64,000 nucleotides of DNA from contig NZ_JOII01000006.1 in the NCBI RefSeq assembly GCF_000719955.1, forward strand, positions 62,001-126,000, read 5' to 3'. The translations under genes were made by a program, and so were the position numbers. Source of the stretch: Streptomyces albidoflavus. GTDB taxonomy: Bacteria > Actinomycetota > Actinomycetes > Streptomycetales > Streptomycetaceae. This document shows positions 2,568-16,289 of the stretch, one piece after another. Below the pieces are notes generated by a model. The model had not been told where the DNA came from, did no database searches, and saw only the letters and a list, made by a program, of their open reading frames with translations. The stretch's first letter is position 1; every line of letters starts with the position of its first letter.

Positions 2568-3914
2568 ATGTTCGTGATCAACGCTGTCACCAGACGCTAT
2601 GTCGACCGGTGCGCCGAGGCGGAATCGCCGTTGCGGAATGCCGCGCGGAAACTCAGCCTTCCGGCCGTCTACTCCCAGTCGTTCGGCCAGGTGCTCCTGG
2701 ACCGCCCGCTCTTCGCCGACCGGACGGAGACCGAGGAGTTCGCCGACGACCTCCGTTCCCTCTTCACCCTCATGACCTCGCTGCCGGCCCGCCTCTACGG
2801 CGGGGACCTGCGCGCCTACTGCGCGGCCATCGGCATGGACGACCGGCTCGCCGAGCTGATGTGCCGGGGCTCGGTGCAGCCGCCCGTCCTGCACGCCCGG
2901 GCCGACGCCTACCACGACGGCACCCGCTTCCACCTGCTGGAACTCAACGCCGGCAGTGAACTGGGCGGCACCGACACCGCCCAGCAGAACCGGGCCTGGC
3001 TCCGCGTCCCCGAGTTCGCCGCCTTCGCCGAGGAGCACGGCCTGCGGCACCTCGACACGACGCCCCGGGTGGCCGCCGCCCTGCGCCGCGCGGCCGAACC
3101 CGTCACCGGCGGCGAGCCGGTCGTCGCCCTGATCGAGAGCACCGGCGGCCTCGCCGCCCACGAGCACGTCTTCACCGCGGTCCGCGAGGCCATGGCGGCC
3201 GAGGGCATCACCCTGCTCCTCGGCGAGATCCACGAACTGGCCGAGCGGAACGGCAAGATCACCCTCCGGGGCACCCCCCTCGACGTCATCCTGCGCTACT
3301 TCGTCGCCGGTGAGCTGCTCGACGACCCGGCCGGCCAGCAGGTCCTCGACACGCTCATCCGTGCCGACCGCGAGGGACGCACCGCGCTCTTCCTGCCCCT
3401 GGACAGCGGGGTCTACGCCAGCAAGGGCAGCCTCGCCCTCCTCCACGACCCCGCCGTCCGGGCCGAGCTGACCGAGGCCGAACGCGCCACCGTCGACCGG
3501 GCCGTGCCCTGGACGCGGCTGCTCGACGAGGGCCGGCAGTACGCCGGTGACCGCGCCGGTCTCCTCGCGCGCTGTCGCGCCGAACGCGAGGAACTGGTCC
3601 TCAAGCCCGGTGTCGGCTACGGCGGCGTCGGCACCGTCATCGGCCACGAGACGGACGACGCGAGCTGGGCCGAGGCGCTGGAACGGGCCGCGGGCGGCGA
3701 CGCCGTCGTCCAGCGGCGGGTCCGCCCCGCCCCCGAACCCGTGGTGGACGCGGTCACCGGGCGCACCGAGGAGTGGGCCGCCAACTGGGGCGTCTTCGTC
3801 GACGGCGAGGGCTACGCCGGAGGCTTCGTCCGCGCGCTCCGGCCCGGCCACGGCGCCGTCATCTCCTTCTCCAACCCGGGCACGCGCAGCAGCTGCGTCT
3901 TCACCGCCGACTGA
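2568..3914 (+). CDS. Circularly permuted ATP-grasp protein (glutathionylspermidine-synthase-like)
   Basis: First gene of the cluster, 448 residues. An acidic metal-binding motif 'LLELNAGSELGG' lies at about residue 124, well before the nucleotide-binding lysine and glycine loop 'LKPGVGYGGVGTV' at about residue 344. That reversed order is the hallmark of circularly permuted ATP-grasp enzymes, which form amide bonds through acyl-phosphates. A late 'VVQRRVRPAPEPVVD' strand fits the adenine pocket. I expect it to join an amine to a carboxylate in the pathway, but the substrates cannot be read from sequence. GGGGG directly upstream of ATG 2568 serves as ribosome site; GTG 2574 is an alternative. 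A 149-bp gap follows. Confidence 0.72.
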   Translation: MFVINAVTRRYVDRCAEAESPLRNAARKLSLPAVYSQSFGQVLLDRPLFADRTETEEFADDLRSLFTLMTSLPARLYGGDLRAYCAAIGMDDRLAELMCRGSVQPPVLHARADAYHDGTRFHLLELNAGSELGGTDTAQQNRAWLRVPEFAAFAEEHGLRHLDTTPRVAAALRRAAEPVTGGEPVVALIESTGGLAAHEHVFTAVREAMAAEGITLLLGEIHELAERNGKITLRGTPLDVILRYFVAGELLDDPAGQQVLDTLIRADREGRTALFLPLDSGVYASKGSLALLHDPAVRAELTEAERATVDRAVPWTRLLDEGRQYAGDRAGLLARCRAEREELVLKPGVGYGGVGTVIGHETDDASWAEALERAAGGDAVVQRRVRPAPEPVVDAVTGRTEEWAANWGVFVDGEGYAGGFVRALRPGHGAVISFSNPGTRSSCVFTAD

Positions 3915-4063
3915 CCGGCCGCCGCACCCTTCCCGCGAGCTCTTCCGCATCGCCGCACCGTCGCACCGTCGCACTCCAGGGCAGCCCTGCCCTCCTTCGT
4001 CACGCACCCGGCCGCCGGGCCGCGCCCCCGCAGGCACGGCCGGCCGCCCTGAAGGGACCGCTG

Positions 4064-5389
4064 ATGTCCGAGCACGCCCCCGACGAGGAAGACCGCCCCC
4101 ACATAGTCGTCATCAACCGATGGCGGGAGCGGTACGCCGACTACGCCGGCTACCTCGACCACGCCACCCACCGCGTCACCTACGTCTCGACCGACGTGGG
4201 GCTCGGCTCCGTGCCGGCCACGGCCGCCGGGACCGAGGTGGTCGCCGCCACCGACGACCTGCCCGCCGTCCGCGCCGCCGTCGCCCGGCTCGCCGCACGC
4301 CACGGCGCCCCGCGCGCCCTGGTCGCCCTCAAGGAGGACGACCTGCTGACCGGCGCCGAGCTGCGGACCGAGTGGGAGCTGCCGGGGCCACGCCCCGAGG
4401 ACCTGGTGCGGTTCCGGGACAAGTACCTGATGTGCCGCGCGGTCGCCGCCGCCGGGCTGCCGGTACCCGCCTTCGCTGCGGCCGAACGCCCTTCAGATGT
4501 ACGGGAGTTCGCCGGCCGCGAGGGATGGCCCGTCGTGCTCAAACCCCGTATCGGCAGCTCCAGCGCGGGCGTTCGGGTCCTGGACGGGCCCGAGGAGCTG
4601 CCCGGGGACGCCCCGTTCGCCGAGCCGATGCTGGTCCAGAGCTTCGACGCACGCCCCATCCACCACGCCGACGGCGTCTTCGACGGCACCCGCGTCACCC
4701 GGCTGCGCCTCTCCCGGTACGTCAACACCTGCCTGGGCTTCCGCGAGGGCACCTTCCTCGGCTCCGTCGAGGTGGACGACCCGGCCGTGGTCCGGGCGGC
4801 CGAGCGGGCCGCGACCGCCTACCTGGCCGCGCTCACCGACGCCCCCACCCCCTTCCACCTGGAACTCTTCATCGGCCCCGCCGGGGAGGCCGGGCCGGAC
4901 TGCTCCTTCCTGGAGGTCGGTGCCCGGGTGGGCGGCTCGGAGATCCCCTTCATCTGGCGCGACCTGCACGGCCACGACCTGATGCGGACCGCCTTCGACC
5001 TCCAGCTCGGCCGCACCCCCGCCGCCGCGGACGCCGCTGCCACCGGCGAGGTCGGCGGCTGGCTGCTGATCCCCGCCCCGGCCGAACGCCCCTGCCTGAT
5101 CACCCACGTCACCTCGATGACCGGGCTGACCCCGGGGCCGTACGCCGAGGTGGTACTGGCCCCCGGCGGGGTGCTGCCGGAGGCGGACGCCTACTACGAG
5201 CACGTCGGCGGGAGGTTCCGGTTCCGGGGCCGCACCAGCGCCGAGGTGACCGAGGCGCTGATCCACACGGCGACCCGGTTCCGGGTCAGTGCCGAACCGA
5301 TTCTGCGGAGCACGCCCGCGGGCCCGTCGCCAAACGGCCGCACCGCGCTCTCCGCCGCGCACACCGCACCCGTGGAGGTGACCGGATGA
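4064..5389 (+). CDS. ATP-grasp domain carboxylate-amine ligase
   Basis: The 441-residue product has standard ATP-grasp order: N-terminal Rossmann-like domain, 'FRDKYLMCRAV' at the domain junction, ATP lysine and glycine loop 'VVLKPRIGSSSAGVRVL' (about residues 157-173), 'PMLVQSFD' hinge strand, then 'FLEVGARVGGSEIP' (about residues 284-297) for metals. In the usual E-x-N-x-R metal motif the Asn is Gly here, a variant seen among ligases of secondary metabolism. The start is the ATG at 4064; the open frame continues upstream but without similarity. The stop overlaps the next ATG (ATGA). Substrates unknown. Confidence 0.75.
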   Translation: MSEHAPDEEDRPHIVVINRWRERYADYAGYLDHATHRVTYVSTDVGLGSVPATAAGTEVVAATDDLPAVRAAVARLAARHGAPRALVALKEDDLLTGAELRTEWELPGPRPEDLVRFRDKYLMCRAVAAAGLPVPAFAAAERPSDVREFAGREGWPVVLKPRIGSSSAGVRVLDGPEELPGDAPFAEPMLVQSFDARPIHHADGVFDGTRVTRLRLSRYVNTCLGFREGTFLGSVEVDDPAVVRAAERAATAYLAALTDAPTPFHLELFIGPAGEAGPDCSFLEVGARVGGSEIPFIWRDLHGHDLMRTAFDLQLGRTPAAADAAATGEVGGWLLIPAPAERPCLITHVTSMTGLTPGPYAEVVLAPGGVLPEADAYYEHVGGRFRFRGRTSAEVTEALIHTATRFRVSAEPILRSTPAGPSPNGRTALSAAHTAPVEVTG

Positions 5390-6105
5390 AGGACTACGCC
5401 GAACAGATCCTCGACGGCGAGGGCGAGAACGACTACACCCGCTACATGCGGACCGACGCGCTGCTCTCCCTCCAGCGCGGGCCCGGGGAGTGGGTCCACC
5501 GGGACGAGATGCTCTTCCAGATCGTCCACCAGTCGACCGAGCTGTGGCTCAAGCTCGCCTGCGCGGAGGTGGCCGAGGCGACCCGCCGTATCGAGGCCGG
5601 CGAGCTGGACGCCGCCACCCGTCTGCTGGGCCGGGCCGCGCTCGGCGGCCAACTCGTCACCCAGCAGCTGGAGATGATGCGCCGTCTCTCCCCCTGGGAC
5701 TTCCAGACCATCCGCACCATCCTCGGCCACGGCTCCGGCGCCGACTCGCCGGGCTGGCGCGCGGTCCGCAGCCACAGCCGGGTGATCGGCGCCGCCTTCG
5801 ACAAGCTCGTCGCCGACCGGGGCATCGACCTCGCCGAGGTCTACCGCACCGGCGAGGACACCCCCGAGTACCGCCTCGCCGAGGCGATGATCGAGTGGGA
5901 CGACCGGATCTCCATCTGGCGCGTCCAGCACTTCAAGGTGATCACCCGCATCATCGGCCACCAGTCCGTCGGCACCCAGGGCACCCCGGTCGACATCCTG
6001 GCCAAGCTGATCTCGCACAAGCTCTTCCCCGAGCTGTGGCACCTGCGCACCGAACTCACCGCCACCGGACCGATGGGCGACCAGCCGGTACGGGAGGGAC
6101 TGTGA
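5386..6105 (+). CDS. Tryptophan 2,3-dioxygenase family protein
   Basis: A 239-residue haem dioxygenase of the TDO family, which oxidatively opens the indole ring of tryptophan to N-formylkynurenine. Visible hallmarks: 'DEMLFQIVHQSTELWLKL' with the distal His at residue 48, the substrate-carboxylate Arg at residue 125 (GWRAV), the axial haem ligand His182 in 'WRVQHFKVITRIIG', and 'KLFPELWHLRTEL' near the end. The loop normally reading G-x-G-G-x-x-G is 'GTQGTPVD', and the family F-Q-S-x-Q-Y-R stretch is ADSPGWR, so substrate choice may differ from free L-tryptophan. It is shorter than typical bacterial TDO (about 280). Its ends overlap both neighbours by 4 bp. Confidence 0.85.
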   Translation: MKDYAEQILDGEGENDYTRYMRTDALLSLQRGPGEWVHRDEMLFQIVHQSTELWLKLACAEVAEATRRIEAGELDAATRLLGRAALGGQLVTQQLEMMRRLSPWDFQTIRTILGHGSGADSPGWRAVRSHSRVIGAAFDKLVADRGIDLAEVYRTGEDTPEYRLAEAMIEWDDRISIWRVQHFKVITRIIGHQSVGTQGTPVDILAKLISHKLFPELWHLRTELTATGPMGDQPVREGL

Positions 6106-7247
6106 GCACCCTCGCCGCCGGACCGCGCCCCTCCGGCACGCTGAGCGCGGAGGAGTTCCGGGCCCACTTCCCCACGCTGGAGCGCGTCACCCACCTCGCC
6201 GGCTGCGGCCTCGCCCCCCGCTCGACCGCGCTGGACGAGGCGCTCGCCGAGATGCTGGAGGCGATGGCCTCGCACGGTGCTCCCTGGCATCTCTTCGAGG
6301 AGAGGACCGCCCAGGCCCGCGAGCGGTTCGCCGCCCTGGTCGGGGCCGACCCCGAGCAGATCGCCGTGGTCCCCAACGCCTCCGTCGGCGCCTACCAGGT
6401 CGCCTCCACCGCCGACTGGACCGCCCGGCCCCGCCTGGTCACCACGCCGCTGGAGTTCCCCTCCCTGGCCCACATCTGGCTCGCCCAGCGGCCCCGGGGC
6501 GCCGAGGTCGTCTTCGCCGAGGACCCCGAGGAGTACGCGGCGGCCGTCGACACCACCACCCGGCTGGTCTCGGTCCCCATGACGGCCTACCAGGACGCCC
6601 TGCGGATGCCGGTCGCCGAGATCGCCGAAATCGCCCACGCCCGCGGCGCCGAGGTCTTCGTCGACGCGTACCAGGCGGCCGGAGTCGAACCCGTCGACGT
6701 GCACCGCCTCGACTGCGACTACCTGGTCGCCGGCACCTCCAAGTACCTGCTCGGCCTCCCCGGCCTGGCTTTCCTCTACGCGCGTCGCCCTGAGGCGGCC
6801 GACCTGGACCCGGCCCTGACCGGCTGGTTCGGACGCCGCGACCCCTTCGCCTTCGACCCCCGCCTCCTCGACTTCTCCGGCACGGCGCGCCGCTACGAGA
6901 CCGGCACCCCGCCGGTCCCCGCCTGCTACGCCGCCGCCGCCGGGCTCGGGCTGATCGCCCGGACCGACCCGGCGCGGGTACGCGCCCACGTCCAGGAACT
7001 CACCGCCCGCGCCGCCGACGCGCTGCGCGCCCAGGGCGAGAGCGTCCGGGAGATCCCCGCCGCCCGGCGCGGCGCCCACATCGGTCTGCTCGACCCCGAA
7101 CCCGCCCGGCTCGCCGAGGAGCTGGGACGCCGCGGGGTCGCCGTGAGCGCCCGGGGCGACGTGGTCCGCGTCGCCTTCCACTACTACAACCACCCCGACG
7201 ACATCGCCTCGCTCTGTAAGGCGCTGCGTGAGTACAGGTCCCGCTGA
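6102..7247 (+). CDS. PLP-dependent class V aminotransferase / kynureninase-like enzyme
   Basis: The 381-residue product is a fold-type I PLP enzyme of the class V group (cysteine desulfurase, kynureninase, isopenicillin epimerase). The cofactor-binding lysine is Lys214 in 'VAGTSKYLLGLPG', preceded by the Asp of 'EVFVDAYQAAGV' that contacts the pyridine nitrogen. No catalytic cysteine loop of a desulfurase is apparent. Directly after a TDO-family gene, a kynurenine-cleaving (anthranilate-forming) or transaminating role is an attractive guess but is inference. GTG start overlaps the previous stop. Confidence 0.75.
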   Translation: MSTLAAGPRPSGTLSAEEFRAHFPTLERVTHLAGCGLAPRSTALDEALAEMLEAMASHGAPWHLFEERTAQARERFAALVGADPEQIAVVPNASVGAYQVASTADWTARPRLVTTPLEFPSLAHIWLAQRPRGAEVVFAEDPEEYAAAVDTTTRLVSVPMTAYQDALRMPVAEIAEIAHARGAEVFVDAYQAAGVEPVDVHRLDCDYLVAGTSKYLLGLPGLAFLYARRPEAADLDPALTGWFGRRDPFAFDPRLLDFSGTARRYETGTPPVPACYAAAAGLGLIARTDPARVRAHVQELTARAADALRAQGESVREIPAARRGAHIGLLDPEPARLAEELGRRGVAVSARGDVVRVAFHYYNHPDDIASLCKALREYRSR

Positions 7248-7301: not shown

Positions 7302-8546
7302 ATGTTCACAGCCGAACTCGCCTCCTGGGCCCGCGAACCGGACCCCGGAAGATTTCCCTACGACGCCGTCGTCCGCGAGTACCACCGCGTCGGCAAGCAC
7401 TTCGTCCCCGCCGAACTGCTCCAGGAACTCACCCGGGTACGCGACATGCTGCCGGCCGTGCACGGCCCCTGGCCGGAGATACGCGCCCTGGCGTCCTTCC
7501 TCGACACCGCGCTGGACAAGCCGGACGGCCGCTACGACTACCCGACCTACCTGGCGCTGCCCGTCCTGGAACTGCCCAGCGCCGACGACCCGGTCTCCAC
7601 CGCGCCCTTCGCCCGGCCCCGCTGCGACCGGCTCATCGCCCAGCTCGTCGCCGACGCGCTCGACTTCGAACTGGCCGCGCTGGACGGGCTGAGCGTACGG
7701 CTGCCGGAGATGCGCCCCGGCGAGGATCTCGTCGTCAAGCGCTGCAAGCACGGACTGCGCGCGGTCCTGCCCGCCCTCGGCCGGATGGCCCTGGACCGGG
7801 GCGTCACCGCCACCGGCCACATCGACCGGGCCCGCCAGGTCCGCACCCTGGTCCGCGCCGACATGTCGGTGGCCGAACGGCGCGCGGTCCAGCTGAGCGT
7901 CCTGCCGGTCTACGTCTCCCACGACGAGTACCTCTTCCTGCGCGTCCTGCAGTCCTTCGAGACGACGTTCGTGCTGCTCGCCATGGACCTGCGCGCCGCC
8001 ATCGAGGCACTCGCCGGGCGCCGCGCCGAGGAGGCCGTCCACTTCATCCGGGGCGCCGAGGAGGCGCTGCGCGAGTCCGCGCCGCTCTTCTCCATGCTCG
8101 CCACCATGCAGATCGGCTCGTTCCGCACGTTCCGCGAGTTCACCGAGGGCGCCAGCGCCATCCAGTCCCGCGGCTACAAGCTGGTCGAGGCGCTCTGCCG
8201 CACCCCCGACAAGGAGCGGGCCGAGTCGCCCGCCTTCCACTCGGTGCCCGAGATCCACGCCCGCCTCGCCGGGGGACACCCCAACCTCGACGACGCCTAC
8301 CGCGAGGCCCGGGAGTCCGGCGCCCTCGACGCGGAGGCGGCCGCGGCGGTCGAGTCGGCCATGACCGGCTTCGCCCAGGCGCTCCAGCGCTGGCGCGGCA
8401 CCCACTACCGGCTCGCCGTGCGGATGCTCGGCGAGGCCACCGGCACCGGCTACACCGAGGGCACCCCGTACCTCGACTCGGTGCGCGACATACCCGTCTT
8501 CCACCACGCCGCGCCCGCGGCCGACCGGACCGTGAGGACACGATGA
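7302..8546 (+). CDS. Divergent TDO-superfamily haem protein (TDO/PrnB-like)
   Basis: A 414-residue protein whose second half aligns with the TDO core by eye: 'LQSFETTF' at the position of the distal-His helix, 'EGASAIQSRGYKLVE' at the substrate-Arg segment, and 'WRGTHYRLAVRMLG' with the axial haem ligand His368, followed by a 'GTGYTEGTPYL' glycine loop. The distal His is replaced by Leu216 and the carboxylate-binding Arg by Lys293. The long N-terminal region recalls PrnB of pyrrolnitrin synthesis rather than catabolic TDO. ATG 7302 has GCAGGA at the right spacing; an in-frame GTG lies 12 bp upstream. The reaction is not predictable. Confidence 0.6.
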   Translation: MFTAELASWAREPDPGRFPYDAVVREYHRVGKHFVPAELLQELTRVRDMLPAVHGPWPEIRALASFLDTALDKPDGRYDYPTYLALPVLELPSADDPVSTAPFARPRCDRLIAQLVADALDFELAALDGLSVRLPEMRPGEDLVVKRCKHGLRAVLPALGRMALDRGVTATGHIDRARQVRTLVRADMSVAERRAVQLSVLPVYVSHDEYLFLRVLQSFETTFVLLAMDLRAAIEALAGRRAEEAVHFIRGAEEALRESAPLFSMLATMQIGSFRTFREFTEGASAIQSRGYKLVEALCRTPDKERAESPAFHSVPEIHARLAGGHPNLDDAYREARESGALDAEAAAAVESAMTGFAQALQRWRGTHYRLAVRMLGEATGTGYTEGTPYLDSVRDIPVFHHAAPAADRTVRTR

Positions 8547-10210
8547 CCGCAGTGGACGCACCCGTGGGGATCGTCGGAGCCGGGCCCGTCGGCCTGGTCG
8601 CCGCCCTCAGACTCGCCGGCCTCGGCGTGGCCAGCATCGTGCTGGACGCCAAACCCTCCCTGGTCAAGCAGGGTTCCAAAGCCTGCCTCATCCAGGGCGA
8701 CGTCCTGGAGATCCTCGACAAGGCGGGGTGCGCCGACCCCGTCGACGCCGAGGGCGTGACCTGGCGCGTCGCGCGGACCTACGTGGCGAACGAGGAGATC
8801 CGCGCGGTCACCCATCCCAAGCCGCTCGGCTACGGCCCGTTCGTCAACATCTCCCAGTACCGCATCGAACAGGTCCTGGCCGAACGCGCCGCCGCCGAAC
8901 CCCTCATCGACCTGCGCTGGGACCACCAGGTCGAGGACGTCGCCCAGGACGCCGCCGGGGTCACGCTCACCGCCAGGACCTCCGGCGCCGAACAGGTCCT
9001 GCGCTTCCGGCACCTGGTCGCCTGCGACGGCGTCCGCAGCACCCTGCGCGAACTGCTGGGGGTGGAGTGGACCGGGTACACCCACAAGGACCGGTTCCTC
9101 ATCACCGACATCAAGGCCGAACTGCCGCTCGCCAAGGAACGGCACTTCCACTACAACCCGTCGTTCAACCCGGGCCGCCAGCTGGTCATGCACCCGCAGC
9201 CGGACGACATCTGGCGCATCGACTGGCAGCTCCCGCCCGACGCCGACATCGAGGCCGAACGCGCCGACGGCCGCTTCGACGCCCGGGTGCGCGCCGTCAT
9301 CGGCGACATCCCCTACGAGATCGACTGGGTCAGCACCTACCGCTTCCACCAGCGCGTCGTCGCCCGGCTCCGGGTGGGCCGGGTGCTCTTCGCGGGCGAC
9401 GCCGCCCACGCCCTGCCGCCGTACGGCTCGCGCGGCATGAACAGCGGCATCCAGGACGCCGACAACCTCGCCTGGAAACTCGCCCAGATCGAGCGGGGCC
9501 TGGCCGACGAGGAACTGCTGGAGAGCTACCACACCGAGCGGTACGCCGCGGCGCGCGAGAACCTCCGGGTCACCGAGGCCACCATCCGCTTCATGGTGCC
9601 CCCGCACCCCCTGCGCCGCTGGGCCCGGTCCGTCCTGCTGCGCCTCTCCAAGGTCCTGCCCTCGGCCGAGCGGCGGGTCAACAGCGGCCGCATGGCGGAG
9701 CCGTACGTCTACCGCGAGTCGCCGCTCATCCCGGGGGCCGAGGCCCACCCGCTGCTCGGCGCCTTCGCACCGGACGCGGCGCTCACCGGCGAGGGCGCCC
9801 CCGACCGGCTGCGCCGCCTCTTCGGCCGCGGCTTCACCGGGCTGCTGATCGCCCCCGACGCGGCCGGCGCCGCCCGGCTCGCCGCCGAGGCCCGCTCGCA
9901 CCCGTGGGCCGTCCCGGCCGGCCTCGTCGCGGTGCTCCCCGCCGGCGTCCCGGCCGACGGCCTGCCCGAGGACGTCACCCTCGTCCGCACCGGCCCCGAG
10001 GGCCTGCCCGCCGGGTACGCCGCCACCACCCCGGTGTGGTGGCTGGTCCGGCCCGACGGCCACCTCGCCGCCCGCTCCACCCGCGGCGAGAGCTTCGCCG
10101 CCGCACTCCACACCGCCGCCGGAGCCAGCGTCCCGGCCGACGACGGCACCACTCCGGAAGGCGACGCCGCCCGCGTGGCCGCCCCCCTGCTGAGAGGAAC
10201 CCAGGCATGA
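8543..10210 (+). CDS. FAD-dependent aromatic hydroxylase (PHBH/PheA fold)
   Basis: The 555-residue flavoprotein monooxygenase has the GxGxxG dinucleotide motif at residues about 9-16 (GIVGAGPVG), the 'ACDGVRS' DG motif, and the 'VLFAGDAAHALPPYGSRGMNSG' GD motif near residue 285. These single-component enzymes use NAD(P)H and O2 to hydroxylate activated aromatic rings; closest relatives by feel are 3-(3-hydroxyphenyl)propionate and phenol hydroxylases, including the C-terminal thioredoxin-like tail. In this context ring hydroxylation of a kynurenine or anthranilate unit is likely. ATG lies in a 4-bp overlap with the preceding gene. Confidence 0.82.
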   Translation: MTAVDAPVGIVGAGPVGLVAALRLAGLGVASIVLDAKPSLVKQGSKACLIQGDVLEILDKAGCADPVDAEGVTWRVARTYVANEEIRAVTHPKPLGYGPFVNISQYRIEQVLAERAAAEPLIDLRWDHQVEDVAQDAAGVTLTARTSGAEQVLRFRHLVACDGVRSTLRELLGVEWTGYTHKDRFLITDIKAELPLAKERHFHYNPSFNPGRQLVMHPQPDDIWRIDWQLPPDADIEAERADGRFDARVRAVIGDIPYEIDWVSTYRFHQRVVARLRVGRVLFAGDAAHALPPYGSRGMNSGIQDADNLAWKLAQIERGLADEELLESYHTERYAAARENLRVTEATIRFMVPPHPLRRWARSVLLRLSKVLPSAERRVNSGRMAEPYVYRESPLIPGAEAHPLLGAFAPDAALTGEGAPDRLRRLFGRGFTGLLIAPDAAGAARLAAEARSHPWAVPAGLVAVLPAGVPADGLPEDVTLVRTGPEGLPAGYAATTPVWWLVRPDGHLAARSTRGESFAAALHTAAGASVPADDGTTPEGDAARVAAPLLRGTQA

Positions 10211-11151
10211 CCACCCAACCACCCCCGTACGCATGGCTCAACGGTGGAGTCGTCCCCTGGGACCAGTGTGTTCTGCACGCGCGCAGCCAGGGGGCGTTCT
10301 GGGGCGCCAACGTCTTCGAGGGGCTGCGGGTCTACCGGGACGAGGACGGGCAGCGCCAGGTCTTCCGCGTCCAGGACCACCTGGACCGGCTGCGCCGCTC
10401 GATGAAGAGCCTGCACATGGAGATCGAGTACACCGACGAGGAGCTGACCCGGGCCTGCATGGACCTGGTCCTCGCCAACGACTTCGAGGCCGACGCCCAC
10501 GTCTGCGTGGTCGCCTACTTCGGTCTGGGCTCCACCTTCGACCCGATGGGGCGCACCACCGAGACGGGCGTCCACATCACCTCCACGCCGGTGCCGCGCT
10601 CCGCCGCGCACGGCAGCGGGGTGGCCGCGACGATCTCCTCCTGGCGCCGCATCGGCGACGACACGATGCCCCCGCGCATCAAGACCGGCGCCAACTACCA
10701 CAACAGCCGCCTCGCCCAGCACGAGGCGCTGCGCAACGGCTACGACACGGCGCTCCTCCTCAACCAGCAGGGCACCCTCGCCGAGGCCCCCGGCTCCTGC
10801 GTGGTGGTCGTCCGCGACGGCCGGCTGATCACCCCGCCCGGCACCAGCGGCGTCCTGGAGGGCATCACCGTCGACACCGTCGCGCGCCTCGCCGACGAGC
10901 AGCTCGGCCTGACCCTCCAGCACCGCCCCGTCGACCGCACCGAGCTGTACGTGGCCGACGAGGTCTTCCTCTGCGGCACCATGTCCGAGCTGCTGCCGGT
11001 CACCAGCGTCGACCGGCTCCCCGTCGGCGACGGCACCCCGGGCCCGCTGACCCGCGCCCTGCAGAACCACTACGACGACGCGGTCCGCGGCCTCGGCAAG
11101 CACCCCGAGTGGTGCACCCCGGTCCCGGCCCGGACGGGCGGTGCCGCATGA
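10207..11151 (+). CDS. Class IV aminotransferase (branched-chain-aminotransferase-like)
   Basis: A 314-residue fold-type IV PLP enzyme. 'GANVFEGLRVYR' near residue 35 is the IlvE-like start of the fold; Lys159 in 'PRIKTGANYHNSRLA' is the Schiff-base lysine; 'LEGITVDTVARLA' and 'LYVADEVFLCGT' form the cofactor phosphate pocket as in IlvE. Its placement in a kynurenine-type cluster suggests transamination of a pathway intermediate rather than valine/leucine metabolism. Kynurenine transamination would give kynurenic-acid-type rings; that is inference. Translationally coupled on both sides. Confidence 0.82.
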   Translation: MTTQPPPYAWLNGGVVPWDQCVLHARSQGAFWGANVFEGLRVYRDEDGQRQVFRVQDHLDRLRRSMKSLHMEIEYTDEELTRACMDLVLANDFEADAHVCVVAYFGLGSTFDPMGRTTETGVHITSTPVPRSAAHGSGVAATISSWRRIGDDTMPPRIKTGANYHNSRLAQHEALRNGYDTALLLNQQGTLAEAPGSCVVVVRDGRLITPPGTSGVLEGITVDTVARLADEQLGLTLQHRPVDRTELYVADEVFLCGTMSELLPVTSVDRLPVGDGTPGPLTRALQNHYDDAVRGLGKHPEWCTPVPARTGGAA

Positions 11152-11927
11152 GCCTGCTGACCGACCTGGTGACGGCGGTGCGCACCGGCGGCGTCCGCGT
11201 CGTCGACCTGACCTCCCCGCTCAGCGAGGAGACCCCGATCATCGACCTGCCGCCCGAACGCGGCCAGCCCTGGCCCTTCGGCCGCGAGGTGATCAGCCAC
11301 TACGACGCGGCCGGCCCCACCGTCTACTGGAACAACATCCGGCTCTCCGAGCACACCGGCACCCACTTCGACGCGCCCGTGCACTGGCTCTCCGGCAAGG
11401 ACGGCCAGGACGTCTCCCAGGTCCCGGCCGAGCGCCTGGTCGGCCCCGCCGCCGTCATCGACCTCACCGCCGAGGCCGCCGACGATCCCGACTTCCTGAT
11501 GCGCCGCGAGCACGTCGAGGCGTGGCAGGAGCGCCACGGCGCGCTGCCCGAGGGCGGCTGGCTCCTCTACCGGAGCGGCTGGGCCGAGCGCCAGGACGAC
11601 CCGGCCGCCTTCCACAACGGCCGCCACACCCCGGGCGTCGCCCCCGACTGCGCGCGCTGGCTCGCCGAGGAGACCCCGCTGGCCGGGATCGGCGTGGAGA
11701 CCGTCGGCACCGACGCCGGACTCGCCGGCGAGTTCCCCGACCGGCCGTACCCCTGCCACTGGTACTTCCACGGCGCCGGCAAGTACGGCCTGACCCAGCT
11801 GCGGAACCTCGCCCAGCTGCCGCCCACCGGCGCGGTCCTCATCGCGGGGCCGCTGCCCATCGTCGGCGGCTCCGGCAGCCCCAGCCGGGTGCTCGCCCTG
11901 GTCGAGACCGCCCCCGAAGGAGCCTGA
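11148..11927 (+). CDS. Cyclase-family hydrolase (kynurenine formamidase-like)
   Basis: The 259-residue product contains the defining metal motif of this family, H-x-G-T-H-x-D-x-P-x-H, at residues 69-79 (His69, His73, Asp75, His79). Bacterial KynB, which deformylates N-formylkynurenine, belongs here, as do other amide hydrolases and isatin hydrolases. The early 'VDLTSPLSEETP' strand is also typical. With a TDO-family gene in the same operon, N-formylkynurenine hydrolysis is the most economical role. ATG in a 4-bp overlap with the aminotransferase gene. Confidence 0.82.
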   Translation: MSLLTDLVTAVRTGGVRVVDLTSPLSEETPIIDLPPERGQPWPFGREVISHYDAAGPTVYWNNIRLSEHTGTHFDAPVHWLSGKDGQDVSQVPAERLVGPAAVIDLTAEAADDPDFLMRREHVEAWQERHGALPEGGWLLYRSGWAERQDDPAAFHNGRHTPGVAPDCARWLAEETPLAGIGVETVGTDAGLAGEFPDRPYPCHWYFHGAGKYGLTQLRNLAQLPPTGAVLIAGPLPIVGGSGSPSRVLALVETAPEGA

Positions 11928-11929
11928 CC

Positions 11930-12619
11930 ATGCGGGACAGCACGGGATTCGACCGCGCCAGCGACCTGCTGCGGCGGCACACCGGTGACACCGGGCGCCC
12001 CGGCGAGTTCACCCTCCTGGACCGCGAATGGGAGCTGCTGGACGGGGTGTTCAGCCCGACCTACACCCCGGTCACCGGCCTGTTCACCACCTGGCTGCCG
12101 TTCCCCGACGGGGGCTCCTTCCTGGAGATCGGCTCGGGCACCGGGGTCACCGCCGTGGTCGCGGCCCAGGAGGGCTGCGCCTCGGTGACCGCCCTGGACC
12201 TGAGCGAGGAGGCCGTCGAGAACACCCGCCGCAACGCCGCCCGCCACGGCGCCGGGGACCGCGTACGGGTGCTCAGGAGTGACCTGTTCTCGGCGCTCGG
12301 GCCCGAGGAGCGCTTCGACCTCATCTACTGGAACTCCAACTTCGCCGAGCCGCCCGAGGGTTTCGTCAACGAGACCGACCTGCACCACGCCTTCTTCGAC
12401 CCCGGGTACGACGCGCACCGCCGCTTCCTGCGCGAGGCCCCGGCCCGGCTGAACCCCGGCGGACGCGTCCTCCTCGGCTTCAGCAGCATCGGCAACGTCG
12501 AACTGCTGCGTGCCCTGGCGGCCGAATCGGGACAGAAGCTCACGCTCTTCAGAAGTCAAGGGCGAGAAGTGGACACGATGGTGATCGAGTTTCAGATGTG
12601 GGAGCTCACGGCGGAGTGA
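11930..12619 (+). CDS. SAM-dependent methyltransferase
   Basis: The 229-residue class I methyltransferase shows motif I 'FLEIGSGTGVTAV' (about residues 65-77), the acidic 'TALDLSEEAVENTRRNA' ribose-binding strand, and 'LIYWNSNFAEPP', which takes the place of the N-P-P-Y motif found in HemK-like N-methyltransferases. 'LNPGGRVLLGFSSIG' completes the fold. The target could be an amino, hydroxyl or ring carbon of the pathway product. It begins 2 bp after the cyclase stop; the ribosome site GAAGGAG lies inside the end of that gene. Confidence 0.8.
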   Translation: MRDSTGFDRASDLLRRHTGDTGRPGEFTLLDREWELLDGVFSPTYTPVTGLFTTWLPFPDGGSFLEIGSGTGVTAVVAAQEGCASVTALDLSEEAVENTRRNAARHGAGDRVRVLRSDLFSALGPEERFDLIYWNSNFAEPPEGFVNETDLHHAFFDPGYDAHRRFLREAPARLNPGGRVLLGFSSIGNVELLRALAAESGQKLTLFRSQGREVDTMVIEFQMWELTAE

Positions 12620-12678: not shown

Positions 12679-13122
12679 GTGCCCCAGAACGACGACGCCC
12701 GCGACCGCACCCTCTCCCTCCTGGACGACATCAGCCGGGGTGTGCTGGTCACCCTGAAGAAGGACGGCCGCCCGCAGCTGTCCAACGTCGACTTCACCTA
12801 CGACCCGGAGAAGGGCGTCATCCGCTTCTCCACCACCGACGGCCGCGCCAAGGTCCGCAACCTGCGCCGCGACCCCCGGATCAGCCTCCACGTCACCACC
12901 GCCAACGGCGGCGCGTACGCGGTCTTCGAGGGCACCGCCACCCTCTCCGACGTGGCCGCCGCCCCCGACGACGAGGCCGTCGAGGAACTGGTCGACGTCT
13001 ACCGCGCCGTCCAGGGGGAGCACCCCGACTGGGACGAGTACCGCACGGTCATGGTCGAGGACGGGCGCCTCGTCGTCCGGTTCTCCATCGACCACAGCTA
13101 CGGCTGGGTCCCCGGCGCCTGA
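12679..13122 (+). CDS. PPOX-class flavin/F420-dependent oxidoreductase
   Basis: The 147-residue split-barrel protein has the pattern of actinobacterial PPOX enzymes: 'GVLVTLKKDGRPQLSNVDFTY' type N-terminus, 'FSTTDGRAKVRNLRRDPRI' cofactor segment, 'YAVFEGTATLS', and a C-terminal 'YGWVPG'. Members bind F420, FMN or haem; actinobacterial ones are often F420-dependent reductases. GTG 12679 has GAAGGA 6 bp upstream. The 59-bp gap from the methyltransferase gene suggests the same transcript. It may reduce an intermediate produced by the dioxygenase or monooxygenase. Confidence 0.75.
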   Translation: MPQNDDARDRTLSLLDDISRGVLVTLKKDGRPQLSNVDFTYDPEKGVIRFSTTDGRAKVRNLRRDPRISLHVTTANGGAYAVFEGTATLSDVAAAPDDEAVEELVDVYRAVQGEHPDWDEYRTVMVEDGRLVVRFSIDHSYGWVPGA

Positions 13123-13202: not shown

Positions 13203-13775
13203 ATGCCCCGCCTGCACGTCGTCATAGCCTCCACCCGCCCCGGCCGCACCGGCCCGGCCGTCGCCGACTGGTTCACCGGCATCGCCGAGAAGCACGGCGG
13301 GTTCGACGTCCACGTCGTCGACCTGGCCGAGGTCGGGCTGCCCCTGCTGGACGAGCCGCACCACCCCGCGGAGCGGAACTACACCCACCAGCACACCAAG
13401 GACTGGAGCGCCTCGGTCGACGCCGCCGACGCCTTCGTCTTCGTCGCCCCCGAGTACAACTACGGCATCAACGCCGCCCTGAAGAACGCCATCGACTACC
13501 TCTACTTCGAGTGGCAGTACAAGCCGGTCGGCATCGTCAGCTACGGCAACACCTCCGCCGGCCTCCGGGCCGCGCAGATGACCAAGCAGGTCGTCACCAC
13601 GCTGAAGATGATGCCGGTCACCGAGTCCGTGGCGATCCACTTCATCGGCACCCACATCGCCGAGGAAGGCACCTTCCAGGGCACCGAGGGCATGGCCGAG
13701 GCCGCCGGCGGGATGCTCGACGAGATCGCCCGGTTCGCCGAGGCGCTGCGCCCGCTGCGCGAGCCCGCAGTCTGA
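13203..13775 (+). CDS. NADPH-dependent FMN reductase
   Basis: The 190-residue flavodoxin-fold protein has the phosphate-binding start 'VVIASTRPGRTGPAVADW' and the isoalloxazine motif 'APEYNYGINAALKNAIDYL', both diagnostic for NADPH:FMN reductases and azoreductases. It could deliver reduced flavin to another cluster enzyme or reduce a quinone or quinone-imine intermediate. A start at ATG 13203 follows AAGGAG at good spacing. The 80-bp gap to the PPOX gene contains no terminator. Confidence 0.85.
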   Translation: MPRLHVVIASTRPGRTGPAVADWFTGIAEKHGGFDVHVVDLAEVGLPLLDEPHHPAERNYTHQHTKDWSASVDAADAFVFVAPEYNYGINAALKNAIDYLYFEWQYKPVGIVSYGNTSAGLRAAQMTKQVVTTLKMMPVTESVAIHFIGTHIAEEGTFQGTEGMAEAAGGMLDEIARFAEALRPLREPAV

Positions 13776-13818: not shown

Positions 13819-15054
13819 GTGCAGCAAGCCCACATCATCCTGGTCGGAAGTGGCGGACAGCCCTACCGCGACTACGCCTTCCGGTCCCTGGCCGGACGGT
13901 ACCGGCTCTCGGCCCTGCTGCCGACGGACCCCACCTGGCAACAGCCCCACCTCCAGGACTGGCGCACCGCCGACCTCACCGACCCGGACGCCGTCACCGG
14001 CGCCCTGAAGGAGCTGGCCGACGACGGCTCCGCGGTGCTCACCTGGGACGAGACCGTCCTGGAGGTCACCGCGGAGGCGGCGGGCCGGCTCGGCCTGCAC
14101 CACATGAGCGCCCGCTCCGCCCAGCGCTGCCGGGACAAGTACCTCACCCGCCGCCTGCTGGACGAGGCGGGGCTGCCCGCCGTCCGCCACGGCCTCGCCC
14201 ACACCGCCCGGGAGGCCGAGGAGATCGCCGCCCGCCTGGGCTTCCCCGTCGTCGTCAAACCCCGCGCCCTCGCCGGCAGCGTCGGCGTGGTCCGCGTCGA
14301 GGAGCCGGAGGCGGTCGCCGCCGCCTTCGAGCTGGCGGGCGGCGCCGGGTACGCCACCCTGCCGAACGGCCACGGTATCCTCGTCGAGGAGTTCCTCGAC
14401 GGCCCCGAGATCAGCGTCGACAGCGCCGTCCTGGACGGCGAGGTGAGCTGTGTCCAGGTGGCCGCCAAACGCCTCGGCTACGCCCCGCACTTCGAGGAGA
14501 CCGGCCACCTCGTCAAGGGCTGGGACGGCACCGAGCCGTGGGCCGATGAGGTCCGCGCCCTGGTCACCGCCGCCCACACCGCCCTCGGCGTGGAGGCGGG
14601 CGTCACCCACGCCGAGGTCCGCCTCACCTCCCGCGGCCCGCGCCTGGTCGAACTCAACGGACGGCTCGGCGGCGACCTCATCCCGTACGCGGGACAGCTC
14701 GCCACCGGCGTCGACCTGGTCCGGGCGGCCGCCGCCGTCGCCCTCCGGGAGCGGCCCGACCTCACCCCCACCCGCGCCCTCACCACCGAGGTCCGGTTCG
14801 TCTACCCGCCGCACGACGGGCGGGTCGCGGCCGTCTCGGTCGGCCGGGCCGCCGAACTGCCCGGCGTGGCCCACGCCGCCACCCTGGTGGCCCCCGGCGA
14901 CACGCTGCTCCTCCCGCCGCGCCAGCCGATACCCCGGCTCGCGGTGCTCATCGCCGAGGCCGCCGACGAGGCCGGGTGCGCCGAGGTCCTGGCCCGGGCA
15001 CTGCCGGAGGTCACCAGCGAGGTCGTCCCGCTCACCGGGGAGCCCGGCCGATGA
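13819..15054 (+). CDS. ATP-grasp ligase (third of the cluster)
   Basis: The 411-residue ATP-grasp enzyme has 'RCRDKYLTRRLLDEAG' at the junction to the central domain, ATP lysine and loop 'VVVKPRALAGSVGVVRV' (about residues 150-166), 'ILVEEFLDGPEISVDS' hinge, and an intact metal motif 'LVELNGRLGGDLIP' near residue 278. It looks like the carnosine-synthase/PylC/bacilysin-ligase type of dipeptide-forming ligase. Unlike the ligase at 4064, Asn is retained in the metal motif. GTG start; GGAGGGG lies about 9 bp upstream. Its stop overlaps the transporter start. Confidence 0.78.
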   Translation: MQQAHIILVGSGGQPYRDYAFRSLAGRYRLSALLPTDPTWQQPHLQDWRTADLTDPDAVTGALKELADDGSAVLTWDETVLEVTAEAAGRLGLHHMSARSAQRCRDKYLTRRLLDEAGLPAVRHGLAHTAREAEEIAARLGFPVVVKPRALAGSVGVVRVEEPEAVAAAFELAGGAGYATLPNGHGILVEEFLDGPEISVDSAVLDGEVSCVQVAAKRLGYAPHFEETGHLVKGWDGTEPWADEVRALVTAAHTALGVEAGVTHAEVRLTSRGPRLVELNGRLGGDLIPYAGQLATGVDLVRAAAAVALRERPDLTPTRALTTEVRFVYPPHDGRVAAVSVGRAAELPGVAHAATLVAPGDTLLLPPRQPIPRLAVLIAEAADEAGCAEVLARALPEVTSEVVPLTGEPGR

Positions 15055-16289
15055 GCCTGCTCGGCCGCTTCCGCCCGGTCGACCGGCTGATCGTCACCCA
15101 CGGCCTGTCCTCCTTCTGCCTCGGCCTCGTCTTCCCGTACACCGCGATCCACCTCGCCGCCCAGCCCGGGGTCGGCACCGGCGGCGTCGCGCTCTTCTAC
15201 GGCGCGGCCGGCGTCGCCAACCTCGCCGTCGCCCTCCTGCTGACCGGCGGTGTGCTACGGCTGCCCCGGGTCACCCTCGGCGTGCTCGGCACCCTGCTGT
15301 GGTTCGTCGGCTACCTGACGATGCCGTTCGTCTCCTCGCACGCCCTGGCGCTGGTGGCGGGCGTGGCCATCGGCTGCGGCCAGGGCGGCTTCCTCGCCGC
15401 GATCGTGCCGCTGGTCAACTCCCTGGTCACCGCCGAGGAACGCCGCAAGGTCTTCGCCCGCCGCTACGCGGTGCTCAACGCCACCCTTGCCGCCGGCTCC
15501 CTGGTGGCCGGCGCGCTGACGCTGGTGCTGCCGCGCGGCGTCATCCCGTACTTCTTCGTCGCCAACGCGGTGGGCATCCTGCCGCTCACCCTCGCCATGC
15601 TGATCGCGGGGCGGCACGCCCGGGCCGCCGACGAGGAGAAGGAGAAGGCCGGGGGAGGGGAGGACGGGCCGCTGCTGCCGATGGCGGCGCTGGTCCGGCT
15701 GGCCATGCCGGCCGCCGCCGTCCAGCTCGCCGTCTTCCTCTTCGGCTTCAGCCAGTTCGAGGCGACCGCGCCGCTGGTCTCCGAACGGCTCATGCAGATG
15801 GGCCTGTTCGTGGTCTCCATCCTGCTCGCCGTCAACGTCCTGGTGATCGTCTGCACCCAGCGCCTGGTGACCCGCCTCCTGGAGGGCCGCCCGGAGACCG
15901 ACGGCCTGCGGATCGCGGTGGGCCTGTGGACCGTCGGCTACGCGGTGGCCGGGGCGATGGCCTTCCTGCCGTACGGCTTCCGCCTCACCGGGCTGCTGGT
16001 CTACGCCGTGCTCTTCGCCCTCGGGGAGTGCGCCTACTCCTGCTCGTTCCACCCGTGGCTGATCTCCCTGGTCCCCGACCGGGAGCTGACCCGGGCCAAC
16101 GCGCTGGCCAACTCCATGATGGGGGTGGGCAACTTCGCCGGGCCCTCGATCGGCGTGGCGCTCGCCGTCACCGGCAGCGCGCCCGTGGTCTGGTTCGGCC
16201 TCGGACTGTGCTGCACCCTCATCACGGTCGCCGTCGGCCTGCTGGCCCGCAGGAAGGCGGCGAAGGCTCCCGCCCCCGCCGCCGCCTGA
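15051..16289 (+). CDS. MFS transporter, probable product exporter
   Basis: The 412-residue protein has about twelve hydrophobic segments split by a charged cytoplasmic loop of Glu/Lys (about residues 188-202), the usual major-facilitator layout. It is coupled by ATGA to the last ATP-grasp gene and is the final gene of the cluster, which suggests export of, or self-resistance to, the pathway product. The gene ends only 12 bp before the convergent glycosidase gene, so transcription of the two may interfere. Confidence 0.8.
   Translation: MSLLGRFRPVDRLIVTHGLSSFCLGLVFPYTAIHLAAQPGVGTGGVALFYGAAGVANLAVALLLTGGVLRLPRVTLGVLGTLLWFVGYLTMPFVSSHALALVAGVAIGCGQGGFLAAIVPLVNSLVTAEERRKVFARRYAVLNATLAAGSLVAGALTLVLPRGVIPYFFVANAVGILPLTLAMLIAGRHARAADEEKEKAGGGEDGPLLPMAALVRLAMPAAAVQLAVFLFGFSQFEATAPLVSERLMQMGLFVVSILLAVNVLVIVCTQRLVTRLLEGRPETDGLRIAVGLWTVGYAVAGAMAFLPYGFRLTGLLVYAVLFALGECAYSCSFHPWLISLVPDRELTRANALANSMMGVGNFAGPSIGVALAVTGSAPVVWFGLGLCCTLITVAVGLLARRKAAKAPAPAAA

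What the first reader, a model, noticed from the sequence alone, without database searches (positions are those of the whole stretch)
2568..16289. Natural-product cluster with three ATP-grasp ligases, two TDO-fold enzymes and no NRPS/PKS
Thirteen co-directional genes, mostly with 4-bp overlaps, combine three different ATP-grasp proteins (one circularly permuted), two members of the haem tryptophan-dioxygenase superfamily, a formamidase-like cyclase, two PLP enzymes, an FAD hydroxylase, a methyltransferase, two flavin/F420-type proteins and an exporter. ATP-grasp ligases form amide bonds without carrier proteins, so the likely product is a small peptide-like or amide-linked compound built on a tryptophan-derived aromatic unit. 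I know no characterised pathway with this exact set.
Basis: partly seen in the sequence, partly recalled or inferred. Interest (0 to 1): 0.87.

Follow-up and report, generated by a model that had tools for sequence, protein, structure and literature searches.

The report
Tryptophan-based peptide cluster with ATP-grasp ligases
A streptomycete carries a 13-gene pathway that probably oxidises tryptophan with two haem enzymes, turns it into an unusual amino acid and joins it to other building blocks with stand-alone ligases; no described pathway with this gene set was found.

Summary
Thirteen co-directional genes (2568-16289) encode three ATP-grasp ligases (one circularly permuted), two TDO-fold haem proteins, two PLP enzymes, an FAD hydroxylase, a methyltransferase, two flavin/F420-type proteins and an exporter, without NRPS/PKS domains. 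Of 80 related loci, 16 carry the core G3-G8 plus ATP-grasp genes, and gene presence is nested (G5, G3, G4, G8, G6, G7, ligases). Tryptophan-supply genes adjoin 8 of 80 loci, all ATP-grasp ones, so tryptophan is the likely precursor. The 'formamidase-like cyclase' is closest to isatin hydrolase (51% identical; catalytic residues kept, two pocket motifs changed); the kynureninase-like enzyme lacks the Tyr before its PLP lysine. I propose tryptophan -> oxidised indole amino acid -> isatin + alanine -> isatinate -> 2-aminophenylglycine -> ATP-grasp peptide. Shown: families, folds, residues, co-conservation, Trp link. Inferred: every reaction and the product. Main rival: a kynurenine/hydroxyanthranilate route. 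The listed results of ten literature searches (several capped) held no such pathway; MIBiG was not available. Verdict: real, conserved, apparently uncharacterised; new variant of a known kind.

The parts
2568..3914 (+). G1: circularly permuted (glutathione-synthetase-fold) ATP-grasp ligase, 448 aa
   Evidence: Pfam CP_ATPgrasp_1 E 0.0012, below cut-off; model pLDDT 90.6; Foldseek to glutathione synthetase 8fbz E 9.8e-18, 3n6x 2.8e-14, Cp1B 9cjn 7.8e-13
4064..5389 (+). G2: ATP-grasp ligase, 441 aa
   Evidence: phmmer to L-amino acid ligase 4wd3 E 5.1e-10; Pfam ATP-grasp only below cut-off
5386..6105 (+). G3: short TDO-superfamily haem protein, 239 aa
   Evidence: PF03301 E 2.5e-24; Phe51, His55 and proximal-His equivalents kept in the family; a segment present in this genome's other TDOs is missing
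6102..7247 (+). G4: class V PLP enzyme, distant kynureninase relative, proposed C-C lyase
   Evidence: best solved match kynureninase 1qz9 E 4.7e-29; PLP Lys and carboxylate Arg 61 of 61, Tyr before Lys 0 of 61
7302..8546 (+). G5: long TDO/IDO/PrnB-like haem protein, 414 aa
8543..10210 (+). G6: FAD aromatic hydroxylase, PRK08132-type
   Evidence: NF006002 520.7 bits, cut-off 416; FAD_binding_3 E 2.1e-68
10207..11151 (+). G7: class IV (BCAT-like) aminotransferase
   Evidence: TIGR01122 256.4 bits, cut-off 245.55; 6h65 E 1.7e-97
11148..11927 (+). G8: isatin-hydrolase-like cyclic amidohydrolase
   Evidence: 5nmp isatin hydrolase E 3.1e-78, 128/250 identical; catalytic residues kept, two pocket motifs changed
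11930..12619 (+). G9: SAM methyltransferase
   Evidence: PF13649 E 1e-12; present in 10 of 17 loci with the full core
12679..13122 (+). G10: PPOX-class F420-type oxidoreductase
   Evidence: TIGR03618 128.7 bits, cut-off 79.05; 4 of 17
13203..13775 (+). G11: NADPH-dependent FMN reductase family
   Evidence: PF03358 E 8e-38; 8 of 17
13819..15054 (+). G12: ATP-grasp, L-amino-acid-ligase type
   Evidence: PF13535 E 3.7e-17 and LAL_C2 over cut-off; 3vot L-amino acid ligase E 2e-23
15051..16289 (+). G13: MFS exporter
   Evidence: PF07690 E 2.1e-21

Best explanation
A carrier-free biosynthetic cluster for a small peptide or amide built on a tryptophan-derived arylglycine. Proposed order: the two haem proteins G3 and G5 put oxygen on C2 and C3 of the indole of L-Trp without completing the ring cleavage of an ordinary TDO (oxindolyl/dioxindolyl-alanine type intermediate). 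G4 cleaves Cbeta-Cgamma in a kynureninase-like retro-aldol step and releases alanine and isatin. G8 opens isatin to isatinate (2-aminophenylglyoxylate), an alpha-keto acid. G7 aminates it to 2-aminophenylglycine. G6 and G9 add ring hydroxyl and methyl groups at an unknown point. G1, G2 and G12 make up to three ATP-dependent amide bonds and G13 exports the product. Supported by calls: protein families, folds, conserved residues, co-conservation and the link to Trp supply. Inferred: each reaction, its order and the product.
For: Trp link: Trp-pathway or DAHP-synthase genes lie in 8 of 80 related loci, all 8 with ATP-grasp genes and G3-G6; 0 of the other 72 (rows; Pfam). Nesting over the 80 loci: G5 alone 11, G3+G5 11, +G4 31, +G8 1 (L072), +G6 6, +G7 17. 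Of the 17 with G7, 16 have ATP-grasp genes over 85 bits (the 17th, L021, has a G1-profile match of 67 bits); of the 6 with G3-G6+G8 but no G7, 0. This fits a linear path in which G7 feeds the ligases. G8: isatin hydrolases are its nearest solved relatives, 51% identical. Mn-site motif, His79 and Trp80 equivalents in 28 of 28, Asp193 and His207 in 27 of 27 readable (roles from passages of PMC6117287). The substrate-recognition Ile32 and Leu34 named in PMC10470551 (passages) are kept in 26 of 28 at fixed spacing. G7 belongs to alpha-keto-acid aminotransferases, which isatinate would suit and anthranilate would not. TDO-superfamily members can do single oxygenation: MarE forms 2-oxindole, IDO has monooxygenase activity (passages of PMC11904535 and PMC12921851). 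Dioxindole acid, isatin and isatinic acid are reported in auxin degradation (passages of PMC12633357). G1's fold matches Cp1B, a natural-product ATP-grasp. The genome has a separate TDO and kynureninase elsewhere.
Against: G8 departs from both motifs that the isatin hydrolase paper highlights: WXW/FXW is [VA]xW in 28 of 28 and GLQC/GLAS is xTQ in 27 of 27, so its substrate may be a different or substituted lactam; a related enzyme with another ring substrate exists (dihydrophloroglucinol cyclohydrolase). No enzyme of the set has been assayed. G4's retro-aldol on dioxindolylalanine has no precedent looked up here (a kynureninase side reaction is recalled). Dioxygenation to N-formylkynurenine by G3 or G5 is not excluded. 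The nesting is imperfect (L054 has G4+G5 without G3), rests on one locus for G8 without G6, includes cut contigs (L023, L028; L044 ends just after G5) and reflects a G5-based search. The loci are not independent: 23 of 80 are titled Micromonospora, and L019, L020, L023, L026 look like one Streptomyces lineage. Two ATP-grasp loci (L005, L016) have an NRPS gene right after G13, and L007 lies beside type I PKS genes, so assembly may not be carrier-free in every relative.
Confidence: 0.42

Rival explanations
1. Kynurenine-type route. One or both haem proteins make N-formylkynurenine, G8 deformylates, G6 hydroxylates, G4 works as a kynureninase to give a (hydroxy)anthranilate, G9 methylates; the ATP-grasps link this acid to amino acids, one of them made by G7.
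For: TDO, cyclase, FAD hydroxylase and class V PLP genes parallel the 3-hydroxyanthranilate set of known actinomycete pathways (recalled). Kynureninase is G4's best solved match, E 4.7e-29. Trp supply genes beside 8 of 80 loci fit this too.
Against: G8 scores 42.1 bits against arylformamidase TIGR03035 (cut-off 223.05) and is far closer to isatin hydrolase. G4 scores 53.1 against kynureninase TIGR01814 (cut-off 246.4) and 0 of 61 relatives have the Tyr before the PLP Lys. It gives no clear role to two haem oxygenases and no cluster-made substrate to G7.
Confidence: 0.25
2. G3 and G5 are subunits of one heteromeric haem oxygenase: G5 binds the substrate and G3, a shortened TDO, supplies the N-terminal segment that caps the neighbour's active site. 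The pair makes one oxidised Trp that the different cluster types share. This can combine with either pathway.
For: G3 is found in 68 of 80 G5 loci. G5 keeps the carboxylate Arg in 93 of 93 and a Thr and a Gly of a TDO-like GTG loop in 87 and 92 of 93; G3 keeps the distal His in 78 of 78 but has another residue for the Arg in 25 of 78, 2 of these Lys. G3 keeps an N-terminal YxxY/M segment, which in MarE comes from the neighbouring subunit (Tyr24, Val27, Leu28; PMC11904535 passages).
Against: 12 of 80 G5 loci have no G3 in the flanks, 3 of them on shorter stretches (L033, L056, L066). No complex prediction could be run. In the two Tropicimonas loci aligned (L062, L073) the partner is a full-length TDO.
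Confidence: 0.4
3. The haem pair only hydroxylates the benzene ring of Trp, and the later enzymes act on hydroxytryptophan; the product is a hydroxyindole peptide.
For: Haem-dependent Trp hydroxylases are known (mentioned in passages of PMC12921851). NRPS-type loci carry the G3/G5 pair without G4, so an intact amino acid can be its product (L136; L027, L035, L036).
Against: Leaves an isatin-hydrolase-like enzyme and a kynureninase-like enzyme, both tied to the pair in the fuller clusters, without substrates.
Confidence: 0.12
4. A catabolic operon for an indole compound rather than a biosynthetic one.
For: Isatin chemistry occurs in auxin degradation; Tropicimonas/Aliiruegeria relatives of the pair sit with peptide import genes.
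Against: Three ATP-consuming ligases, an MFS exporter and Trp-synthesis neighbours point to synthesis; the genome has its own TDO and kynureninase elsewhere.
Confidence: 0.04

Closest known systems
Auxin (IAA) degradation with dioxindole-acetate, isatin and isatinic acid (iad locus) and the isatin hydrolases LaIHA, RsIHA, LaIHB
   Same: Isatin-hydrolase-like enzyme; proposed oxidation of the indole at C2/C3 before the side chain is lost
   Different: Catabolic; first oxygenase is a Rieske-type protein (IadCDE), not a haem pair; ends in anthranilate (passages); G8 lacks two isatin hydrolase motifs
E-64 and cystargolide ATP-grasp pathways
   Same: Amide bonds by stand-alone ATP-grasp enzymes; Cp1B shares G1's glutathione-synthetase fold (74)
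   Different: Epoxysuccinate or beta-lactone units; amide bond synthetases also take part; no tryptophan unit
MarE (maremycin) and PrnB (pyrrolnitrin), haem-dependent aromatic oxygenase superfamily
   Same: Fold of G5; altered oxygen chemistry on Trp
   Different: Described as single enzymes, not a pair; G5 has Leu in place of the distal His (93 of 93)
Kynureninase / 3-hydroxyanthranilate cassettes (recalled: actinomycin, anthramycin type)
   Same: TDO, class V PLP, FAD hydroxylase and methyltransferase types
   Different: One TDO, kynureninase and formamidase, NRPS assembly (recalled); here the equivalog cut-offs are missed
L-amino acid ligases (3vot BL00235, BacD; 4wd3)
   Same: G12 and, weakly, G2
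   Different: Those make dipeptides such as alanyl-anticapsin (recalled); no Trp-oxidising partners

Membership tests
Isatin hydrolase (for G8) | Nearest characterised relatives are isatin hydrolases over the full length | tested here: met
   E 3.1e-78 to 1.1e-59 for the four isatin hydrolase sequences, 128/250 identical to 5nmp
Isatin hydrolase (for G8) | Mn ligands and catalytic Asp-His-His (His69, His73, Asp75, His79, Asp193, His207) | tested here: met
   EHTGTHFDAPxHW 28 of 28; Asp193 and His207 27 of 27 readable, 1 row (L024) split; roles, His73 inferred from the motif; numbering counted on the alignments
Isatin hydrolase (for G8) | Substrate-recognition Ile32 and Leu34 | tested here: met
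   26 of 28 at fixed spacing; L025 and L059 are shifted by one residue and read I/L and L/L by eye (residues)
Isatin hydrolase (for G8) | Isatin pocket motif WXW/FXW | tested here: not met
   [VA]xW in 28 of 28
Isatin hydrolase (for G8) | GLQC/GLAS motif | tested here: not met
   GLTQ 24, GITQ 2, GVTQ 1 of 27
Isatin hydrolase (for G8) | Hydrolyses isatin | not testable with these tools
   needs purified enzyme
Kynurenine formamidase (for G8) | Arylformamidase model TIGR03035 | tested here: not met
   42.1 bits, cut-off 223.05
Kynureninase (for G4) | Equivalog TIGR01814 | tested here: not met
   53.1 bits, cut-off 246.4
Kynureninase (for G4) | Tyr before the PLP Lys (importance recalled) | tested here: not met
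   0 of 61; H 21, M 20, S 12, others 8
Kynureninase (for G4) | PLP Lys, Asp and substrate-carboxylate Arg | tested here: met
   61 of 61 each
TDO-fold haem proteins (G3, G5) | Pfam PF03301 over its cut-off | tested here: met
   86.7 and 49 bits, cut-off 34.9
True tryptophan 2,3-dioxygenase (G3, G5) | Equivalog TIGR03036 | tested here: not met
   129.8 and 62.4 bits, cut-off 390.7
TDO-fold haem proteins (G3, G5) | Proximal haem His | tested here: met
   G3 77 of 78, G5 92 of 93, one gap each
ATP-grasp, circularly permuted (G1) | Pfam cut-off | tested here: not met
   18.3 bits, cut-off 23.1
ATP-grasp, circularly permuted (G1) | Glutathione-synthetase fold | tested here: met
   E 9.8e-18, TM 0.66 on a model of pLDDT 90.6
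L-amino acid ligase (G12) | ATP-grasp_4 and LAL_C2 domains | tested here: met
   62.8 and 35.5 bits, cut-offs 27 and 29.4
ATP-grasp ligase (G2) | Pfam ATP-grasp cut-off | tested here: not met
   14.7 bits, cut-off 27; homology to 4wd3 E 5.1e-10
Branched-chain aminotransferase (G7) | TIGR01122 / NF005146 cut-offs | tested here: inconclusive
   256.4 over 245.55; 275.5 under 279
NRPS/PKS cluster | Adenylation, condensation or ketosynthase domains | tested here: not met
   none listed for the 13 window proteins; relatives L005 and L016 have an adjoining NRPS gene, L007 adjoining PKS genes
ATP-grasp RiPP | Conserved precursor peptide gene | tested here: inconclusive
   intergenic stretches read by eye; blastn of 2032-4075 against the corresponding gaps of 5 loci gave nothing

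The most novel reading that the evidence does not exclude
A widespread, undescribed route turns tryptophan into 2-aminophenylglycine: two paired haem oxygenases split the job of one dioxygenase so that the indole is oxidised but not cleaved, a kynureninase-like PLP enzyme expels alanine to leave isatin, an isatin hydrolase and a class IV aminotransferase make the arylglycine, and stand-alone ATP-grasp ligases build the peptide. The G3/G5 pair would be a portable tryptophan-oxidation module reused by NRPS, nitric-oxide-synthase and methyltransferase clusters.
Probability: 0.33. Interest if true: 0.86.

Novelty: new variant of a known kind. Interest (0 to 1): 0.68.

Why it matters
If right, it adds a tryptophan-based route to an arylglycine, gives the TDO superfamily a paired mode of action, and supplies a signature (G3+G5+G4+G8+G7) for finding ATP-grasp peptides that NRPS/PKS-based searches may miss. 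Because the core occurs in actinomycetes, in contigs titled Chloroflexota and in one gammaproteobacterium, and in nested forms, each step can be tested by comparing minimal and full versions.

Tried and rejected
Kynurenine formamidase for G8: dropped. True kynureninase for G4: weakened. Hydrazine-forming haem enzymes (PMC12154649; abstract and first of seven parts): a KinJ-type family described as new, not pursued. A-domain motifs of neighbouring NRPS genes: pulled out, not interpreted. NOS-guided mining paper (PMC10831120, passages): the terms dioxygenase, PLP and aminotransferase had 0 occurrences. Plasmid collection: 4 records with G5 relatives; H1, H2 and H4 opened, no named product; H3 not opened. 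First neighbourhood clustering seemed to lose genes to overlapping reading frames and was replaced by codon-based calls. SfmD/TyrH were not among the structural matches shown for G5; that absence shows nothing. Distal His as a diagnostic: dropped, since another TDO of this genome (L082, 271 bits to PF03301) also lacks it. Phylum-wide count of G8: not obtained.

Limits: antiSMASH, BiG-SCAPE and MIBiG were not available. One search confirmed 121 relatives and returned 80, so counts 'of 80' concern the best 80. Gene presence used an 85-bit profile threshold of my own. Literature absence is weak: several listings were capped (for example 30 of 2,210 papers, 25 of 1,734, 15 of 29,536, 25 of 99). 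Every paper cited was seen as passages found by terms, except PMC12154649 as said. The genus name is an inference: unnamed same-genus genome G274 has a contig as long as one of Streptomyces griseus BIG105.

Full report
WHAT IS THERE. Codon-based gene calling finds 13 genes on the + strand from 2568 to 16289. Six of 12 junctions are 4-bp overlaps, the rest gaps of 2-149 bp. Family scans give: G1 circularly permuted ATP-grasp (weak), G2 ATP-grasp (weak), G3 short TDO-like, G4 class V PLP, G5 long TDO-like, G6 FAD hydroxylase, G7 class IV PLP, G8 PF04199 cyclase, G9 methyltransferase, G10 PPOX/F420, G11 FMN reductase, G12 L-amino-acid-ligase-type ATP-grasp, G13 MFS. No NRPS or PKS domain was listed for any of them.

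THE CLUSTER IS A CONSERVED UNIT. A scan of one genome per species with a G5 alignment confirmed 121 relatives and returned 80 (L002-L081). Gene order by family is, profile-based presence, tallies (85-bit threshold). Of the 80: 31 have G3+G4+G5, 11 G3+G5, 17 all of G3-G8, 6 G3-G6+G8 without G7, 2 cut contigs G3-G6 (L023, L028), 1 G3+G4+G5+G8 (L072), 1 G4+G5 (L054), 11 G5 alone. ATP-grasp genes (G1, G2 or G12 type) occur in 16 of the 17 full sets and both cut ones, in 0 of the 6 without G7, and in 2 of the other 55 (L010, L032, possibly unrelated). The 17th full set, L021, has a G1-profile match of 67 bits just upstream. G7 thus goes with the ligases. Within the 17, G1 is in 14, G2 in 12, G12 in 12, all three in 9, G9 in 10, G10 in 4, G11 in 8, G13 in 10: the number of ligases and the tailoring genes vary.

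WHERE IT IS LESS CLEAN. In L005 and L016 a co-directional NRPS gene (condensation + adenylation) starts 82 and 19 bp after G13, and L007, where G12 and G13 look degraded, lies beside type I PKS genes. So assembly without carrier proteins is the reading for the window, not shown for every relative. In the genus sample, 18 of 295 genomes have a G5 relative and 52 of 295 a G1 relative; in 4 (G000, G065, G071, G274) the two lie within 5 kb, in 2 (G074, G199) they lie far apart. The G1 family is thus shared with other clusters, several with G12-type ligases. Flanking genes differ between loci; in S. griseus BIG105 (L002) the cluster lies beside triose-phosphate-isomerase-like and 6-phosphogluconolactonase-like genes (read by eye), which suggests insertion as a block.

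TRYPTOPHAN IS THE LIKELY PRECURSOR. Eight of the 80 loci carry Trp-pathway or DAHP-synthase genes within the flanks: L019, L020, L023, L026 (TrpE, TrpG, TrpD), L022 and L077 (class II DAHP synthase), L025 (TrpA, TrpB, TrpF, TrpC) and L028 (TrpE and DAHP synthase I). All eight are ATP-grasp loci; none of the other 72 has any at this threshold. Pfam supports at least one member of each type (TrpB only as the general PALP family). The first four loci look like one lineage, so about five independent cases.

THE CYCLASE IS ISATIN-HYDROLASE-LIKE. G8's best solved relatives are isatin hydrolases (E 3.1e-78, 4.7e-77, 1.5e-76, 1.1e-59); kynurenine formamidases come at E 8e-7. It is 128/250 identical to 5nmp. 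Passages of PMC6117287 name metal and catalytic residues, Trp59/61/80, Tyr204, Gln219, and two motifs (WXW/FXW; GLQC/GLAS). In 28 G8 relatives the metal and catalytic residues are kept (motif 28 of 28; Asp193 and His207 27 of 27), position 204 is aromatic in 27 of 27, and Ile32/Leu34 are kept in 26 of 28; but Trp59 is Val or Ala in all 28 and the second motif is xTQ in 27 of 27. It is a separate, uniform subfamily with the catalytic core of isatin hydrolase and a changed pocket, so a substituted isatin or another activated lactam is possible.

THE PLP ENZYMES AND HAEM PAIR. G4's best solved match is kynureninase (E 4.7e-29), but it misses the kynureninase cut-off and none of 61 relatives has the Tyr before the PLP Lys; the Lys, Asp and carboxylate Arg are invariant. 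G5 keeps the carboxylate Arg (93 of 93) and has Leu for the distal His (93 of 93); G3 keeps the distal His (78 of 78) and the proximal His (77 of 78, one gap), but its carboxylate Arg is replaced in 25 of 78, 19 of them in loci titled Micromonospora (titles). The distal position is not diagnostic, since another TDO of this genome has Thr there. The genome carries that TDO and a kynureninase over its cut-off at C7, so the cluster copies are extra, specialised ones.

MECHANISM. I favour Trp -> oxidised indole amino acid (G3, G5) -> isatin + alanine (G4) -> isatinate (G8) -> 2-aminophenylglycine (G7) -> amides (G1, G2, G12) -> export (G13), with G6 and G9 as ring tailoring. Support for the order is the nesting: loci stop after G3+G5, after G4, in one case after G8 without G6 (L072), and G7 appears only with G8 and G6. 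Dioxindole acid, isatin and isatinic acid are reported in auxin breakdown (PMC12633357), and single oxygenation is reported for MarE and IDO. No step has been assayed. The pocket changes in G8 are the main result against it, and dioxygenation to N-formylkynurenine by either haem protein remains possible.

NOVELTY. The papers listed in ten full-text searches include no pathway with this set, judged by their titles and abstract starts; in the 25 of 99 papers listed the terms aminophenylglycine, isatinate, isatinic acid and dioxindolylalanine have 0 occurrences. Several listings were capped and MIBiG was not searchable, so 'undescribed' is provisional. ATP-grasp-built peptides and Trp-oxidising haem enzymes are each known, so this is a new variant of a known kind; the isatin route, if shown, would be the new chemistry.

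Noticed in passing
L045, L053, L061, L079; L137:9395-17652: Micromonospora loci pair G3, a class V PLP enzyme and G5 with a nitric oxide synthase oxygenase (Pfam E 5.7e-115, tested in L053); the M. zamorensis plasmid copy adds a globin and an MFS transporter: a small NO-linked cluster for which I saw no description.
   Followed up: partly
L136:3434-40778; L027, L035, L036: The G3/G5 pair inside NRPS clusters; the Streptomyces sp. NBC_01006 plasmid copy also has LysW and [LysW]-aminoadipate kinase, a sulfotransferase, sulfate-activation genes and a penicillin acylase.
   Followed up: partly
21 loci with family f5, mostly Micromonospora, e.g. L039, L032, L040: Four-gene cassette G3-G5-class V PLP-O-methyltransferase (methyltransferase tested in L039); in most of these G3 has lost the substrate-carboxylate Arg.
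   Followed up: no
L062, L064, L070, L071, L073, L081: Tropicimonas and Aliiruegeria loci with G5 and a fuller-length TDO (seen in L062, L073); five of the six sit beside peptide ABC transporter genes and an M24 peptidase, L081 not within its flank.
   Followed up: no
L003, L006, L009, L011: Clusters G3-G4-G5-G6-Rieske protein-G8 with no ligase and no G7 (Rieske domain tested in L011); in L003 and L006 a UvrA-like gene follows (read by eye).
   Followed up: no
L005:18432-21200; L016:18355-21252: An NRPS gene (condensation + adenylation) directly follows the exporter gene of two otherwise near-complete clusters; it may extend the product there.
   Followed up: partly
L120, L121: Other same-genus clusters join a G1-type ligase, two G12-type ligases and a G7-type aminotransferase with PKS-like genes (read by eye), so ligase plus class IV aminotransferase looks like a reused module.
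   Followed up: partly
L058 (Cysteiniphilum marinum); L025, L028 (contigs titled Chloroflexota/Chloroflexi): The core with an ATP-grasp gene outside actinomycetes: G3-G8 in L058, a gammaproteobacterium, and in L025; G3-G6 in L028, a shorter stretch.
   Followed up: no
G000:C7:162296-164548 and C18:52210-52980: The same genome has another TDO next to a kynureninase, and a third TDO next to an alpha/beta-hydrolase-like gene (read by eye).
   Followed up: partly
window 135-2031: The five genes before the cluster look like gas-vesicle proteins by eye; not tested.
   Followed up: no
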